A DNA stretch of 37,981 nucleotides from Actinomycetes bacterium (GCA_035489715.1 DATHAP010000207.1:1-37981); one strand, 5' to 3'. Shown: positions 29,134 through 35,000, numbered from the stretch's first letter. The notes: generated from the letters alone by a model not told the origin. Made by a program: numbers and translations.

Positions 29134-29745
29134 TCAGGGGGTCTCGGCGAGCGCCTGACGACGTACTGCCAGCGCACGCTGCACGATCGTCACCGTGCTG
29201 CCCACCGCGACGTACCAGAGCGCGAGCGCCTGGACGTACGGGACGCCGAGGCCCTCGAGCCCGGTCGCGACCAGGACCACGACGAGCCGGTCGGCCCGCT
29301 CGGTGATGCCGACGGCGGCTGTCATGCCGAGCCCCTCGGCCCGGGCTCTCGCGTAGGACACGACCGCCCCGGCCGCCAGCCCGTAGATCGCGAGGGAGCA
29401 CAGCAGGAGGTCGTCGCCGTCGCCGGCGTACCAGAGCGCGATGCCGCCGAAGACCGCCGCGTCGCCCACCCGGTCGAGCGTCGAGTCCAGCCAGGCGCCC
29501 CACCGGCTGGACCGGTCGGACATCCGGGCCATCGTCCCGTCGATCAGGTCGGAGAAGACGAAGCAGGTGATCACCACCGTGCCCCAGAAGAATTCGCCCT
29601 GTGGGTAGAAGCCGAGCGCCGCCCCGGCCACGCCGAGCGTCCCGATGAACGTGACGACGTCGGGGCTCACACCACGACGGACGAGGAACGCGGCGATGGG
29701 CCGGAAGATGCGCGTGAACAGGGCACGCGCGAAGCGGTTCAGCAT
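29134..29745 (-). CDS. pgsA: Phosphatidylinositol phosphate synthase
   Basis: This CDP-alcohol phosphatidyltransferase joins CDP-diacylglycerol and inositol 1-phosphate, giving phosphatidylinositol phosphate for PimA. The 203-residue membrane protein has the full signature D66-x2-D69-G70-x2-A73-R74-x8-G83-x3-D87-x3-D91 (from DLIDGTMARM to DSTLD). Several hydrophobic helices follow. Position next to patA and pimA supports the inositol substrate over glycerol phosphate. It starts at ATG 29745 and reads directly into patA. Confidence 0.92.
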   Translation of the reverse strand: MLNRFARALFTRIFRPIAAFLVRRGVSPDVVTFIGTLGVAGAALGFYPQGEFFWGTVVITCFVFSDLIDGTMARMSDRSSRWGAWLDSTLDRVGDAAVFGGIALWYAGDGDDLLLCSLAIYGLAAGAVVSYARARAEGLGMTAAVGITERADRLVVVLVATGLEGLGVPYVQALALWYVAVGSTVTIVQRALAVRRQALAETP

Positions 29746-29793: not shown

Positions 29794-30078
29794 TCAGCCG
29801 AGCAGGTCCCGGAGCTGCCAGGCGACACCGGCCAGGGCGGAGAGGCCGACCAGGGCGAGGTAGCCGAGCACCAGCCGGGTGTCGCGCAGCAGGCACTTGC
29901 TGCGGGTGAGCCCGGCCCCCCGGGCCCGGACGTAGCCGGTGAAGCCGAGCGCCGCGAAAGCGACGACCACGGCCGGACCGATCAGCCAGGTGAGCAGCGC
30001 GACGGTGGTGAACACGCACAGCCGCAACGGGTCGTACGTCGCCGCGGCACTCCCGTCGGCCTGCTGGGTGGTGGTCAC
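29794..30078 (-). CDS. Small membrane protein after the radical SAM gene
   Basis: The 94-residue protein has a short polar N-terminus and about three hydrophobic segments: LCVFTTVALLTWLIGPAVVV, AALGFTGYV and LVLGYLALVGLSALAGVAW, with a conserved-looking ARGAGLTRSKCLLRDTRLVLGY loop. GTG 30078 overlaps the radical SAM stop by GTGA, so it is probably made with that enzyme. I recognise no family. It is likely a membrane partner of the operon. It lies 48 nt ahead of pgsA. Confidence 0.75.
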   Translation of the reverse strand: MTTTQQADGSAAATYDPLRLCVFTTVALLTWLIGPAVVVAFAALGFTGYVRARGAGLTRSKCLLRDTRLVLGYLALVGLSALAGVAWQLRDLLG

Positions 30079-31655
30079 GTGATCACCTCGAACGGCAGCG
30101 ACCGGCGACCGGCGGCCACCGACATCCGCTGCGCCGACAGCTGGGGCCAGGCCTGCACGGCGCAGAACGGCGCGCACTGGTCCTGCCGCTCCGACCGGGT
30201 GCCGACGTGGACGCAGCACTGGGTCAGCCGCTCCTCGATCATCGTCGAGACGTCCATGAAGGGCTTGACCGTCACCCGCACCACCCGCTCCCCCAGCATC
30301 CGGCGCAGCGCCTTCGACCGGCCGGGCAGCGCGAGCCGCAGCAGCGAGGCGACGCCGAGGTCGCACTGCTCGCAGAGGTCACGCCACAGGTCGGCGACCC
30401 GAGGGTGCGACAGCGACGACTGCTCGGACAGCAGGCCCAGCAGCGACTCCTTCACCGCCGAGCGGACCTGGCGCGGGATGTCCCGGTCGGCGATCCTGTT
30501 GCTGACCAGGTCGAGGTGCTCCATCAGCCGGTCTTCGCCGACCAGGGACACCAGTGACCGCCACTTCCCCGCGTCGTCGCGGATCAGGTAGCCGACGCTG
30601 CAGCAGTGCGGGTGCGAGCACGGCAGAGCCGTGAGGTCGCGCCAGGTGACCCGGCCACCGGTCTGCGGCCCCAGCCGGGCCAGCACACCGGTGTGGGTCA
30701 GCCGGTCCATCGGGTCGATGGCGCCGGACCGGCCCGACCCGAACTGCGGCTGGATCGACACCCCGCCGACGTAGGGCGTGTCCAGCGCGACCTGGAGCAC
30801 CTCGCCGATCTCCCCGTCGTTGACGCCGAGGGCGGCCGTCATGGTCAGCGTCGTGAAGATCTGCCGGTCCGACAGGGCGTGCAGCGCGTCGGCCTTGATC
30901 CGGCGCAGGTCCGCGCCGCGGTGGTGCCGGTGCGCCTCCGCGCTGACCCCGTCGTACTGCAGGTAGACCTCGACCCGCTCGCGGTGGCGCGCCAGCAGGT
31001 CCCCGAGCCCCCGGTCGCGGGCCAGCCGCAGACCGTTGGTGTTGAGGAGCACCCGCACGACGTTGCGCCGGGCCACCTCGTCGAGCAGCCGCTCAAGCTC
31101 GGGGTGCAGCGTCGGCTCGCCGCCGCTGAGCATCAGCACGTCGAGGCGGCCGTTCTCGCGCGCGATGCGCTGGTCGAGGTTGGCCAGCACATCCTCGACC
31201 GGGACGACGCCGGACAGGTCCGGGGCCGAGTCGGCGAAGCACGTGGGGCAGCGCAGGTTGCAGGTCTCGACGACGTCCTCGAGCAGGATGCAGGTGTGCT
31301 GGGTCTGCATCTCGCCCAGCCCGTCGAGGTAGCCGCCGGGCAGCGGCGCGAACGACCCCGGCGTGTCCGGCTGGTGCGCCTTGGTGGGTGCCGTCCAGCG
31401 CTCCAGCCAGGTCAGGATCTCGGGGTCCTCGTCGTAGAGGGTGCGGACCAGCCCGTGCTCGGGGCAGCCGCGCTCGAGCCACACCCGCCCGGCGCGCTCG
31501 GCCAGCCAGCCGGACAGCCGCGCCACCTCGGTGAGCGGCCGCTCCGGGTGCTCCTCGTGGCAGCGCGGGCAGTAGGCGTTGACGTAGCGGCGCACCCGGT
31601 CGCCGCGCAGCGGCATGCCGGTCGCCGGGGGCAGGGCGGTGTCCTGGTCAGCCAC
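30075..31655 (-). CDS. Radical SAM enzyme resembling tetraether lipid synthase (Tes/MJ0619-like)
   Basis: The 526-residue protein has the radical SAM CX3CX2C motif (Cys132, Cys136, Cys139 in ETCNLRCPTCFADS), the SAM-binding GGEPTLHPE and NTNGLRLA segments, and many further cysteines. At the N-terminus are a CPRC pair (29, 32) and CPEHG (64), suggestive of a rubredoxin-like or zinc site. In the second half are 346, 351, 352, 428, 431, 480, 481, 494 and 498, enough for auxiliary iron-sulfur clusters. This layout recalls archaeal tetraether lipid synthase and its bacterial relatives, which couple lipid chains at methyl or methylene carbons. The exact reaction here is unknown. GTG 31655 overlaps the upstream membrane gene by 8 nt. 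Confidence 0.85.
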   Translation of the reverse strand: MADQDTALPPATGMPLRGDRVRRYVNAYCPRCHEEHPERPLTEVARLSGWLAERAGRVWLERGCPEHGLVRTLYDEDPEILTWLERWTAPTKAHQPDTPGSFAPLPGGYLDGLGEMQTQHTCILLEDVVETCNLRCPTCFADSAPDLSGVVPVEDVLANLDQRIARENGRLDVLMLSGGEPTLHPELERLLDEVARRNVVRVLLNTNGLRLARDRGLGDLLARHRERVEVYLQYDGVSAEAHRHHRGADLRRIKADALHALSDRQIFTTLTMTAALGVNDGEIGEVLQVALDTPYVGGVSIQPQFGSGRSGAIDPMDRLTHTGVLARLGPQTGGRVTWRDLTALPCSHPHCCSVGYLIRDDAGKWRSLVSLVGEDRLMEHLDLVSNRIADRDIPRQVRSAVKESLLGLLSEQSSLSHPRVADLWRDLCEQCDLGVASLLRLALPGRSKALRRMLGERVVRVTVKPFMDVSTMIEERLTQCCVHVGTRSERQDQCAPFCAVQAWPQLSAQRMSVAAGRRSLPFEVIT

Positions 31656-31980
31656 CGCTGTACCCCGCGATCAGGGCGATGCACAGTCCGCCGGCCAGCA
31701 GGAGCAGCAGCCCCCAGCCGATGACCAGGCCGAGCCCGAAGCCCCGCCGCTGCGGCGAGCCCGGCGTGCTGGCGAGCACGATGCCCAGCACCAGCGCCGC
31801 CAGGACCGTCACCGGCACGAGCAGCCCGAAGGCGATGCCGAGCGGTCCGGCGACCGACGCGACCAGCCCGAGCAGGATCGGCACGGCGACCGTGCCGACC
31901 ACGCCGACGACCGCACCGAGGACGACGGAACCGGTGGCGAAGCGGCGCGGCGGTCGCTGCGCCCAGGGCGGCTCGGTCAC
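31648..31980 (-). CDS. Three-helix membrane protein of the Lgt-like/radical SAM operon
   Basis: The 110-residue protein has a proline/arginine-rich N-terminus (EPPWAQRPPRRF) and three hydrophobic helices: SVVLGAVVGVVGTVAVPILLGLV, GIAFGLLVPVTVLAALVLGIVLA and GLGLVIGWGLLLLLAGGLCIALIAG. A short basic loop STPGSPQRR separates helices two and three. GTG 31980 overlaps the Lgt-like stop (GTGA) and its end overlaps the radical SAM start by 8 nt. No known domain is recognised; coupling suggests it works with the two lipid-related proteins. Confidence 0.75.
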   Translation of the reverse strand: MTEPPWAQRPPRRFATGSVVLGAVVGVVGTVAVPILLGLVASVAGPLGIAFGLLVPVTVLAALVLGIVLASTPGSPQRRGFGLGLVIGWGLLLLLAGGLCIALIAGYSGG

Positions 31981-32714
31981 GCCACGGCCTCCTGGTGCCG
32001 AGGCTCCTGTGGCTCCCGGGGAGCGAGGCGGATCCGGGTGCACCGGGCCAGCAGCAGGGGCAGCGCGAGCAGCACCACCCACTGCGACCCGGTCAGACCG
32101 ACGGCGAGCACGTCGTTCGTGCGCGTCGTCTCGACCCAGAGCCGGAAGAGGGCGTACGCCGTCAGGTAGCCCACCAGCAGGTCCGCGGGGTCGGCCAGCC
32201 GGTCCCGCAGCGCCAGCAGCACGACCAGGGCCGTCGCGTGGAAGGCGATCTCGTAGAGGAAGGACGGATGAGCCCCGCGCAGCGCCCACGGCAGGTCGGT
32301 CGGCTGCCCGACCGGCTCGGTGAGGAAGCAGCCGACGCGCCCGACCGCGAGCCCCAGGGCGACCGCCGGTGCGAAGAGCGCGCCGGTCCGGTGCGGGTAG
32401 CCCGCGAGGCGCTTGCCGACCAGCGCGCCGACGTACGCCCCGCAGAGCCCGCCGAGCACGCTCTTGGCGCCCGTCTCCCACGCCTGCACGAGCAGCGAGG
32501 CGTCACCGGCCTGCACCAGCCGGACCAGGCCGGCGGCGCGCATCCCCAGGGCTCCGCCGACGACGACGCCGGCGACCACCACGAGCAGCCGCTCGTCCGC
32601 CGCGCCGCGCCGCCGGACCTCCAGCGCCAGCACGGCCGCGCCGGCCGCGATGCCGGCTGCCACGCACAGCCCGTGCACCAGGGCGGCGTGCTCCTGGACG
32701 AGGACGGGCGCCAT
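31977..32714 (-). CDS. Divergent Lgt-like (prolipoprotein diacylglyceryl transferase family) protein
   Basis: The 245-residue protein has about six or seven hydrophobic helices and the Lgt-family marks GALGMRAAG (54-62), VGRVGCFLTEPVG (124-136, with Arg126) and HPSFLYE (149-155). It differs from a true Lgt: the GRxGNF asparagine is replaced (GRVGCF), and the segment aligning with SFHGG of Lgt reads SVLGG (85-89), so the catalytic-type histidine is absent. It is therefore probably a paralogue acting on another substrate or moving glycerol-phospholipid groups. The start is ATG 32714. It is the first gene of a coupled operon with a membrane protein, the radical SAM enzyme and another membrane protein. 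Confidence 0.8.
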   Translation of the reverse strand: MAPVLVQEHAALVHGLCVAAGIAAGAAVLALEVRRRGAADERLLVVVAGVVVGGALGMRAAGLVRLVQAGDASLLVQAWETGAKSVLGGLCGAYVGALVGKRLAGYPHRTGALFAPAVALGLAVGRVGCFLTEPVGQPTDLPWALRGAHPSFLYEIAFHATALVVLLALRDRLADPADLLVGYLTAYALFRLWVETTRTNDVLAVGLTGSQWVVLLALPLLLARCTRIRLAPREPQEPRHQEAVA

Positions 32715-32840
32715 GGTCGCTCACGCTAGGCCCGTCGGGCCCTTGTGCGACGGCGGCTCGCGGGTGAAGGCTGCAAGGCGTTCGGGTGCGCCCGCGACGC
32801 GGCGCACGGAGTCGACGACGACGTCGCGGAGGCGGTCGAG

Positions 32841-35000
32841 ATGGTCCAGACGAGCAATGCCGGAGCCGCCGGAGCTGCACCGACGGCCGACCAGCCAGGG
32901 TCCGTGCGCAACGTCGTGCTGGTCGGCCACTCCGGAGCCGGGAAGACGTCTCTGGTCGAGGCGCTCCTCGTGGCCACCGGGACCATCCCCCGCGCCGGAC
33001 GGGTGGAGGAGGGCACCACCGTCGGCGACTTCGACGAGGCCGAGCAGCGACAGCAGCGCTCGGTCTCGCTCTCGTTGGCGCCGGTGGTGCACGCAGACGT
33101 CAAGGTCAACCTGCTCGACACCCCGGGCTACGCCGACTTCGTCGGCGACCTGCGGGCCGGGCTGCGCGCCGCCGACGCGGCACTGTTCGTGGTCAGCGCG
33201 GTCGACGGGGTCGACGGCGCGACGCAGATGCTGTGGGAGGAGTGCGCCGCCGTCGGGATGCCGCGCGCGGTGGTGGTCACCAAGCTGGACAAGGACCGGG
33301 CGGACTTCGACGAGGCGGTCGCGATCTGCCAGCGCGTCTTCGGCGACGGCGTGCTGCCGCTCTACCTGCCGATGGCCGCCGACGACGGCTCACCCGGCGG
33401 GGTGATCGGCCTGCTGTCCCAGTCCGTGTCCGACTACTCGGGCGGCAGCCGGGTCGAGCGCGAGCCCGACCCCGAACACCTGCCGCTCATCGAGACCGCG
33501 CGCAGCGCACTGATCGAGGGCATCATCGCCGAGTCCGAGGACGAGTCGCTGATGGACCGCTACCTCGGTGGTGAGGACATCGACCTCAAGGTGCTCGTGG
33601 ACGATCTCGAGACCGCCGTCGCCCGCGGGTCCTTCTATCCGGTGCTCGCCACGGCCGCCCCGACCGGGCTCGGCATGACCGAGGTCCTCGAGGTGATGAC
33701 CCAGGCGTTCCCGTCGCCGCTGGAGCACGAGGTGCCGCCGGTGTCGACGCCCGAGGGCGCGCCCCGCGGCCCGCTGTCCTGCGACCCGGCCGGCCCGCTG
33801 GTGGCCGAGGTCGTCAAGACGACGACCGACCCGTACGTCGGCCGGATCTCCCTCGTCCGCGTCTTCTCCGGGACCCTCTCCCCCGACACGACCGTGCACG
33901 TGTCCGGGCACTTCTCCGACTTCTTCGGCACCGACCGAGGCCACCAGGACCACGACGTCGACGAGAAGGTCGGGGCGATCACGTCGCCGCTCGGCAAGAC
34001 CCAGCGGCCGGTGCCCAAGGCGATCGCCGGCGACATCTGCGCGGTCGCCAAGCTGACCCGGGCCGAGACCGGAGACACGCTGTCCAGCAAGGACGACCCG
34101 CTGCTGATGGAGCCGTGGGTCATGCCCGACCCGTTGCTGCCGGTCGCGGTCGTCGCCAGGTCGAAGGCCGACGAGGACAAGTTGTCGCAGGGCCTCGGGC
34201 GGCTGGTGGCCGAGGACCCGACGCTGCGGCTGGAGAACAACCCCGAGACCCACCAGCTCGTGCTGTGGTGCATGGGCGAGGCGCACCTCGACGTCCTGCT
34301 CGACCGGCTCAAGAACCGCTACGGCGTCGAGGTCGAGACGGTGGCGCTGCGGGTGCAGCTGCGCGAGACCTTCGCCGGCAAGGCCACCGCCAAGGGCCGC
34401 CACGTCAAGCAGTCCGGCGGCCACGGCCAGTACGCCATCTGCGACATCGAGGTGGAGCCGCTCGAGTCCGGCCAGGGGTTCGAGTTCGTCGACAAGGTGG
34501 TCGGCGGCGCGGTGCCGCGGCAGTTCATCCCCTCGGTGGAGAAGGGCGTGCGCACCCAGATGGAGCGCGGCGTCGCGGCCGGCTACCCGGTCGTCGACAT
34601 CCGGGTCACGCTGATCGACGGCAAGGCGCACTCGGTGGACTCCTCCGACATGGCCTTCCAGACCGCCGGCGCGATCGCGCTGAAGGAAGCCGCCCGGGCC
34701 ACCCGGATCCACATGCTCGAGCCGGTCGACGAGCTGCAGGTGCTGGTCTCCGACGAGTACGTCGGCGCCGTCATGAGCGACCTGTCCACCCGCCGCGGCC
34801 GGGTGACCGGCACCGAGTCGGTCGGTAGCGGCCGGTCGATGGTGCGGGCCGACGTGCCTCAGGTCGAGATCACCCGCTACGCGATCGACCTGCGTTCCCT
34901 CTCGCACGGCACCGGCACGTTCGCCCGGACCTACCTGCGGCACGAGCCGATGCCGACCCAGCTCGCGCAGAAGCTCCAGGAGGAGAACGCCGACCACTAG
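32841..35000 (+). CDS. fusA2: Elongation factor G-like protein EF-G2
   Basis: The 719-residue protein has all five EF-G domains. The G domain carries G1 GHSGAGKTS, G3 DTPGYADFV and G4 TKLDKD (in place of canonical NKMD). Domains II and III follow (EVVKTTTDPYVGRISLVRVFSGTL; LPVAVVARSKADEDKLSQGL). Domain IV includes KQSGGHGQYAICDIEVEPL, and domain V is DELQVLVSDEYVGAVMSDLSTRRG. It is the EF-G2 paralogue of actinobacteria (like mycobacterial FusA2), whose role differs from translocation and is not settled. ATG 32841 has GGAGG 8 nt upstream, which decides the start over the longer frame from 32745. It is divergent from the Lgt-like gene. Confidence 0.93.
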   Translation: MVQTSNAGAAGAAPTADQPGSVRNVVLVGHSGAGKTSLVEALLVATGTIPRAGRVEEGTTVGDFDEAEQRQQRSVSLSLAPVVHADVKVNLLDTPGYADFVGDLRAGLRAADAALFVVSAVDGVDGATQMLWEECAAVGMPRAVVVTKLDKDRADFDEAVAICQRVFGDGVLPLYLPMAADDGSPGGVIGLLSQSVSDYSGGSRVEREPDPEHLPLIETARSALIEGIIAESEDESLMDRYLGGEDIDLKVLVDDLETAVARGSFYPVLATAAPTGLGMTEVLEVMTQAFPSPLEHEVPPVSTPEGAPRGPLSCDPAGPLVAEVVKTTTDPYVGRISLVRVFSGTLSPDTTVHVSGHFSDFFGTDRGHQDHDVDEKVGAITSPLGKTQRPVPKAIAGDICAVAKLTRAETGDTLSSKDDPLLMEPWVMPDPLLPVAVVARSKADEDKLSQGLGRLVAEDPTLRLENNPETHQLVLWCMGEAHLDVLLDRLKNRYGVEVETVALRVQLRETFAGKATAKGRHVKQSGGHGQYAICDIEVEPLESGQGFEFVDKVVGGAVPRQFIPSVEKGVRTQMERGVAAGYPVVDIRVTLIDGKAHSVDSSDMAFQTAGAIALKEAARATRIHMLEPVDELQVLVSDEYVGAVMSDLSTRRGRVTGTESVGSGRSMVRADVPQVEITRYAIDLRSLSHGTGTFARTYLRHEPMPTQLAQKLQEENADH

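What the first reader, a model, noticed from the sequence alone, without database searches (positions are those of the whole stretch)
29794..32714. Coupled Lgt-like / radical SAM operon next to PIM genes: candidate membrane-lipid modification system
Four genes overlap in series (GTGA, 8 nt, GTGA): a divergent Lgt-like protein, a three-helix membrane protein, a Cys-rich radical SAM enzyme and another small membrane protein. The radical SAM protein has an N-terminal CPxC/CPEHG site, CX3CX2C and at least nine further cysteines, a layout like tetraether lipid synthase (Tes, MJ0619), which joins lipid chains between unactivated carbons. Lgt-family proteins bind phosphatidylglycerol. A bacterium using both could make cross-linked or membrane-spanning lipids, methylene-modified chains, or an unusual lipid anchor. 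The operon lies between pgsA and EF-G2, where the conserved neighbourhood has pgsA directly beside HIT and thrS.
Basis: partly seen in the sequence, partly recalled or inferred. Interest (0 to 1): 0.82.

Follow-up and report, generated by a model that had tools for sequence, protein, structure and literature searches.

The report
Mobile Lgt-like/radical-SAM membrane cassette
A small block of co-translated genes, shared by scattered actinobacteria and one distant marine bacterium, always pairs a relative of the lipoprotein-lipidating enzyme Lgt with a relative of the archaeal enzyme that fuses lipid tails, which points to an undescribed membrane lipid or lipoprotein modification.

Summary
Four overlapping genes on the minus strand (29794-32714) encode an Lgt-like protein, a three-TM protein (MP1), a 526-aa Cys-rich radical SAM enzyme and a two-TM protein (MP2). 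The Lgt/radical SAM link is obligate: independent searches of 395 class genomes hit the same 23 genomes, adjacent every time, and all 85 actinobacterial loci with enough upstream sequence carry the pair. One Bacteroidota plasmid carries a divergent version. The radical SAM model matches GDGT-MAS (Tes) over its whole length (E 2e-33; next best fold 5e-9). It is not a Tes orthologue: it scores 138 bits against a 450-bit cut-off, its N-terminal auxiliary [4Fe4S] ligands are gone, and Met439 and Tyr459 are Lys and Val. It is not TrsS either. The Lgt-like protein keeps the PG-activating network (R143, E202, Y235, R239) but has Y26H, N146C and H103L. MP1 varies, but its last TM nearly always ends in Gly-x-Cys at the predicted outer face, including in Persicobacter. 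I infer that MP1 is the Lgt-like enzyme's acceptor and that the radical SAM enzyme acts on the lipid chains; this is untested. The PIM/pgsA neighbourhood is incidental, because the cassette is an insertion there.

The parts
31977..32714 (-). Lgt-like protein, 245 aa, first gene of the cassette; keeps R143/E202/Y235/R239/E243/R246 equivalents, with Y26->H14, N146->C129, H103->L87
   Evidence: Pfam LGT 90.7 bits; below the TIGR00544 lgt equivalog cut-off; residue table; AF2 model best matched by 5AZB E. coli Lgt
31648..31980 (-). MP1, 110 aa, three predicted TM helices; last TM preceded by an R-rich loop and followed by Gly-Leu-Cys near the C-terminus (GGLC-IALIAGYSGG)
   Evidence: ORF; hydropathy; GxC-tailed TM protein in 79 of 85 cassettes against 5-7 in 930 kb of flanks
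30075..31655 (-). radical SAM enzyme, 526 aa, with rubredoxin-like N-terminal site, radical SAM core and C-terminal auxiliary Cys domain; third subfamily beside Tes and TrsS
29794..30078 (-). MP2, 94 aa, two predicted TM helices, conserved DPLRLC...SKCxLRDTRLVL; optional partner, not found next to many mycobacterial cassettes
   Evidence: homologues 53-77% identical beside 60 cassettes; no Pfam match above cut-off
29134..29745 (-). pgsA-like CDP-alcohol phosphatidyltransferase, left border of the insertion (not part of the cassette)
   Evidence: pgsA directly beside EF-G2 without the cassette in six relatives of the same family
32745..35000 (+). EF-G2-like gene, right border of the insertion (not part of the cassette)

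Best explanation
This is a mobile, self-contained membrane cassette for an undescribed lipid or lipoprotein modification. SHOWN: the Lgt-like gene and the radical SAM gene form an obligate, usually translationally coupled pair, together with a small membrane protein that almost always ends in TM-Gly-x-Cys and often with MP2; no other gene recurs. The radical SAM fold is that of the lipid-coupling enzyme GDGT-MAS. INFERRED: the Lgt-like enzyme takes diacylglyceryl from phosphatidylglycerol with its preserved Arg/Glu/Tyr network. Instead of a signal-peptide lipobox it serves the Gly-x-Cys at the outer end of MP1's last helix. That helix has signal-peptide topology, but the bulky residue before the Cys should block cleavage by signal peptidase II. 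From the cytoplasmic side the radical SAM enzyme abstracts hydrogen from a lipid chain, of the MP1-bound lipid or of PG, and makes a C-C or C-S bond or another chain modification. MP2 is probably an accessory or docking subunit. The substrate and the bond made are not known.
For: Same 23 of 395 genomes found independently with the radical SAM protein and with the Lgt-like profile, adjacent in all. Only these genes recur across 20 genus-level groups. Lgt-like/radical SAM/GxC-protein also in Persicobacter (Bacteroidota), with the third gene overlapping the radical SAM stop. Whole-chain fold match to 7TOM (TM 0.71, E 2e-33). PG-handling residues of Lgt invariant, while Y26, N146 and H103 are replaced throughout the family (roles in PMC4728403 and PMC13251419). 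GxC-tailed TM protein about 40-fold enriched per kb in cassettes over flanks; MP1-tail hits in whole genomes lie only in cassettes.
Against: No biochemical data. The acceptor role of MP1 rests on position, topology and one conserved Cys. The Gly-x-Cys is not a canonical lipobox. One clade (L134, L159, L161) has the pair and MP2 but no detected GxC protein. The replaced Lgt residues are individually required for E. coli Lgt function (PMC13251419), so the Lgt-like protein might only bind lipid. The radical SAM enzyme is closer by HMM to TrsS than to Tes, and no solved TrsS structure was found, so the fold search cannot separate the two.
Confidence: 0.33

Rival explanations
1. One reading: the cassette makes cross-linked or membrane-spanning bulk lipids (a bacterial Tes-like system), with the Lgt-like protein presenting phosphatidylglycerol and MP1/MP2 as structural subunits.
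For: GDGT-MAS is the best fold match by far and the only close solved relative by sequence (E 1e-29). GDGT-MAS purified from E. coli holds bacterial phospholipids (PMC9433317), and bacterial Tes homologues have been proposed to make brGDGTs (PMC8941075).
Against: Tes score 138 against cut-off 450. [4Fe4S]N ligands lost, Met439 is Lys and Tyr459 is Val; the helices that form the second lipid pocket in GDGT-MAS align to a strongly conserved polar stretch (SEQSSLSHP). No recurrent link to ether-lipid or fatty-acid genes.
Confidence: 0.2
2. Peptide modification: the radical SAM enzyme modifies MP1 (or MP2), for example at the conserved Cys or the CTGxNPxxY tail, and the Lgt-like protein anchors or processes the product, as in a membrane-bound RiPP-like system.
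For: MP1 is short, variable in its N-terminal part, and ends in a strongly conserved tail. It is present as two copies in some loci. Many Cys-rich radical SAM enzymes act on peptides.
Against: Predicted topology puts the tail outside the cell, away from a cytoplasmic radical SAM enzyme (hydropathy and positive-inside). No SPASM hit; peptide-modifying folds match only the core (SkfB TM 0.34). The tail sequence differs completely between clades apart from Gly-x-Cys.
Confidence: 0.2
3. The radical SAM enzyme works as a TrsS-like enzyme on a small molecule or cofactor, and the Lgt-like protein handles a different glycerol-phosphate-type substrate.
For: TrsS is the best HMM (195 bits). The C-terminal cluster region shares the PC-x-HP-x-C layout with TrsS-like proteins and not with MJ0619.
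Against: Below the TrsS cut-off of 490. TrsS-like loci have a methyltransferase partner where annotation was available and no Lgt-like gene; the Lgt-linked proteins form a separate side of the tree.
Confidence: 0.17
4. Ordinary second Lgt for lipoproteins, with an unrelated radical SAM gene beside it by chance.
For: The family matches Pfam LGT. A second mycobacterial Lgt homologue with the same two substitutions is described as having presumed low Lgt activity (PMC13251419).
Against: Perfect co-occurrence and adjacency in 23 of 23 genomes and across two phyla. The window genome has its own canonical Lgt elsewhere.
Confidence: 0.03

Closest known systems
Tetraether synthase Tes / GDGT-MAS (MJ0619, PDB 7TOL/7TOM, NCBIfam NF045702)
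   Same: Whole-chain fold; rubredoxin-like CX2C...CX2H site; CX3CX2C radical SAM cluster; C-terminal auxiliary Cys domain
   Different: No [4Fe4S]N ligands; Met439 is Lys, Tyr459 is Val, C438 is Val; extra invariant Cys (C346, C431, C494); 22% identity; far below the family cut-off; bacterial aerobes; partner is an Lgt-like gene
TrsS radical SAM (seleno)protein (NCBIfam NF045646)
   Same: Best-scoring family HMM; shared C-terminal Cys layout including C346
   Different: 195 against 490 bits; nearest TrsS-like loci seen here have a methyltransferase gene and no Lgt-like gene; no Sec codon in the window gene
Lgt, phosphatidylglycerol:prolipoprotein diacylglyceryl transferase (E. coli, PDB 5AZB/5AZC)
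   Same: Fold and PG-activating residues R143, E202, Y235, R239, E243, R246, G154
   Different: Y26H, N146C and H103L throughout; a CPGC loop in nearly all members but not in the window; a canonical Lgt exists elsewhere in the genome
Second mycobacterial Lgt homologue MSMEG_5408 (PMC13251419)
   Same: Carries the same Y26H and N146C pair, so it is probably the Lgt-like gene of such a cassette (inference)
   Different: Described only as a low-activity Lgt; no radical SAM partner is mentioned in that paper; I could not read the M. smegmatis locus here

Membership tests
Tes / GDGT-MAS | Passes the NCBIfam NF045702 curated cut-off (450 bits) | tested here: not met
   137.9 bits
Tes / GDGT-MAS | Overall fold of 7TOL/7TOM | tested here: met
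   AF2 model pLDDT 85.6, Foldseek E 2e-33, TMq 0.71
Tes / GDGT-MAS | Rubredoxin site CX2C...CX2H and CX3CX2C radical SAM motif | tested here: met
   C29, C32, C64, H67; C132, C136, C139, invariant in 89 homologues
Tes / GDGT-MAS | N-terminal auxiliary [4Fe4S] ligands C73/C77/C80 | tested here: not met
   Replaced by GYLxGLGEMQTQHTC in the actinobacterial family; present in the Persicobacter relative
Tes / GDGT-MAS | Labile Met439 ligand and Tyr459 | tested here: not met
   Lys and Val
Tes / GDGT-MAS | Couples two lipid chain ends | not testable with these tools
   needs biochemistry or lipidomics
TrsS | Passes NF045646 cut-off (490 bits) | tested here: not met
   195 bits
TrsS | Methyltransferase partner, as in the TrsS-like loci seen here | tested here: not met
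   No methyltransferase recurs next to the cassette; TrsS-like loci L016, L143 and L144 have one
Lgt (diacylglyceryl transferase) | Pfam LGT above gathering score | tested here: met
   90.7 against 24.9 bits
Lgt (diacylglyceryl transferase) | Equivalog cut-off TIGR00544 (118.9 bits) | tested here: not met
   53.7 bits
Lgt (diacylglyceryl transferase) | PG-activating residues R143, E202, Y235, R239 | tested here: met
   invariant in 86 members
Lgt (diacylglyceryl transferase) | Essential Y26 and N146; H103 (Trp in canonical actinobacterial Lgt according to PMC13251419) | tested here: not met
   His, Cys and Leu/Ile throughout; Persicobacter His, Cys, Met
Lgt (diacylglyceryl transferase) | Diacylglyceryl transfer to a lipobox Cys | not testable with these tools
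   MP1 has a GxC at a TM end but no canonical lipobox

The most novel reading that the evidence does not exclude
A new membrane-modification system in aerobic bacteria: an Lgt-derived enzyme lipidates the C-terminal Gly-x-Cys of a small multi-pass protein (an uncleaved, C-terminally lipidated membrane protein), and a GDGT-MAS-type radical enzyme then joins or modifies the attached lipid chains, giving a covalently cross-linked or bilayer-spanning lipid anchor.
Probability: 0.15. Interest if true: 0.92.

Novelty: new variant of a known kind. Interest (0 to 1): 0.66.

Why it matters
Bacterial Tes homologues have been suspected of making membrane-spanning lipids, but in the papers read here none has been tied to a defined genetic system in aerobic actinobacteria. 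This cassette gives a compact test case with its own partner genes, in mycobacteria that can be manipulated, and it sits on mycobacterial plasmids. It also turns the 'second Lgt' of mycobacteria from a weak duplicate into half of an obligate radical-SAM pair, and it names a likely acceptor protein.

Tried and rejected
PIM/pgsA link: rejected; relatives have pgsA beside EF-G2 with no insert, and no other cassette lies near these genes. Missing H103 as proof of lost Lgt activity: dropped, because canonical actinobacterial Lgts lack His there (PMC13251419; own canonical Lgt reads IWGA). Phage relatives of MP1 (a weak PF24191 match): none found. Virus-borne cassettes: only generic radical SAM hits. 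Recurrent extra genes near the cassette: none beyond conserved background in Streptosporangiaceae. Insertion-site repeats: nothing convincing, and no G+C anomaly. Literature on Lgt plus radical SAM gene pairs: none found in the library searched.

Full report
OBSERVATION. The overlaps are GTGA, 8 nt and GTGA. Pfam gives LGT for the first, and Radical_SAM with the HMPTM zinc ribbon for the third; MP1 and MP2 have no Pfam family.

LINKAGE. A scan of genome contigs gave 343 relatives of the radical SAM protein, and the best 80 were kept, at 71-78% identity. All 80 are actinobacterial: Nonomuraea, Nocardia, Mycobacterium/Mycolicibacterium, Microbispora, Planomonospora, Planobispora, Microtetraspora and MAGs. 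In all 85 non-window loci with enough upstream sequence an Lgt-like gene lies just upstream on the same strand. The three exceptions (L063, L074, L091) are contig ends. Most neighbours overlap. Only the Lgt-like gene, MP1, the radical SAM gene and MP2 recur across 20 genus-level groups (its other universal clusters are antisense or shifted frames of these genes). Two independent searches of the same 395 class genomes, one with the radical SAM protein and one with the Lgt-like profile, returned exactly the same 23 genomes, adjacent in each. Distribution is patchy within genera, and the cassette occurs on mycobacterial plasmids.

AN INSERTION. In six relatives of the window's family pgsA lies directly beside EF-G2, with no cassette genes found; where measured, the pgsA to EF-G2 gap is at most about 54-84 bp. 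The window cassette is therefore an acquired block, and its PIM-gene surroundings say nothing about function: none of 83 other cassettes lies near pgsA, the PatA-like gene, EF-G2, HIT or thrS.

THE RADICAL SAM PROTEIN. Sequence: PDB best match 7TOL, E 1e-29. NCBIfam: TrsS 195 bits (cut-off 490) and Tes 138 bits (cut-off 450). Every member of a 36-sequence alignment matches both families. The AF2 model (pLDDT 85.6, pTM 0.88) matches 7TOM over its whole length (E 2e-33, TM 0.71). The next fold, SkfB, has E 5e-9 and TM 0.34. Against GDGT-MAS (features from PMC9433317), the rubredoxin site and CX3CX2C are kept. The N-terminal auxiliary cluster ligands are lost, Met439 is Lys, Tyr459 is Val and C438 is Val. 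There are 16 Cys conserved in at least 85 of 89 members; of these, C346 is shared with TrsS-like proteins but not with MJ0619. I read it as a third subfamily beside Tes and TrsS. In a tree, the Lgt-linked proteins, with Persicobacter, lie on one side of a branch (86/74), and the 17 actinobacterial ones form a 100/100 group; the place of long-branched Persicobacter is unsure.

THE LGT-LIKE PROTEIN. The own genome has a separate canonical Lgt. The cassette protein keeps the equivalents of R143, E202, Y235, R239, E243, R246 and G154 in all 86 members, but has Y26H, N146C and H103L/I. These roles come from PMC4728403 and PMC13251419. The latter notes that M. [quoted passage not shown] I infer that it belongs to this family; I could not read its locus. 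The AF2 model's best match is E. coli Lgt (prob 1.00, TM 0.58, E 1.4e-3). Nearly all members carry a CPGC loop that the window protein lacks.

MP1. The N-terminal part varies. The last helix follows a K/R-rich loop and ends in Gly-x-Cys with a short tail: CTGxNPxxY in most, CxALx-type tails in the window clade. A GxC-tailed TM protein is present in 79 of 85 cassettes, against 5-7 in about 930 kb of flanks. MP1-profile hits in whole genomes fall only in the cassettes. In the Persicobacter plasmid (L145) an Lgt-like gene (His, Met, Cys at positions 26, 103, 146) overlaps a 29%-identical radical SAM gene. Its stop overlaps a 59-aa membrane protein ending in GTGIC-GSLLS. So the same three-part logic recurs in another phylum. 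Exception: one actinobacterial clade (L134, L159, L161) lacks a detectable GxC protein.

MECHANISM. Shown: the obligate gene module, the folds, and the residue pattern. Inferred: transfer of diacylglyceryl from PG to MP1's Gly-x-Cys at the outer face, and radical chemistry on a lipid chain from the cytoplasmic side. Loss of the surface-exposed N-terminal cluster would suit aerobic hosts (inference). TrsS-like loci carry a methyltransferase where annotated and no Lgt-like gene, so the partner gene marks the subfamily.

NOVELTY. I found no paper on this gene pair in the held library, which lacks many subscription journals. The parts belong to known superfamilies; the combination and the Gly-x-Cys component appear to be undescribed.

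Noticed in passing
L145:7265-9571: Persicobacter psychrovividus plasmid pPP1 carries a divergent cassette (Lgt-like, radical SAM with intact N-terminal auxiliary cluster motif, 59-aa GxC membrane protein), about 2 kb from a PUFA-synthase-like polyketide gene.
   Followed up: partly
L143:5091-8171 and L144:5055-8072: Haloarchaeal plasmids carry a TrsS/Tes-like radical SAM gene overlapping a methyltransferase gene, beside redoxin and DUF547 genes; a similar radical SAM-methyltransferase pair lies on a Mycolicibacterium vanbaalenii plasmid (L016).
   Followed up: no
PMC7174638, MSMEG_5406: A hypothetical gene numbered close to MSMEG_5408 falls about 9-fold on zinc depletion in M. smegmatis; whether it belongs to the cassette was not verified.
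   Followed up: no
L013:13225-16545: A Mycobacterium avium sputum isolate carries the cassette on a 344-kb plasmid, with two MP1-like genes.
   Followed up: partly
G400:C111:121789-122523: The Lgt-like gene of this genome has one in-frame TGA: a possible pseudogene or sequencing error.
   Followed up: no
L160:2599-2856: The MP1 analogue of this divergent cassette lies upstream of the Lgt-like gene and has a WWDGxxWTxH-type N-terminal segment resembling DUF2510 proteins (resemblance from memory).
   Followed up: no
window:35031-35438: A DCC1-like thiol-disulfide oxidoreductase gene lies between EF-G2 and HIT.
   Followed up: no
L055 and L056: Two contigs of Nonomuraea lactucae carry identical cassette copies: a duplication or an assembly artefact.
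   Followed up: no
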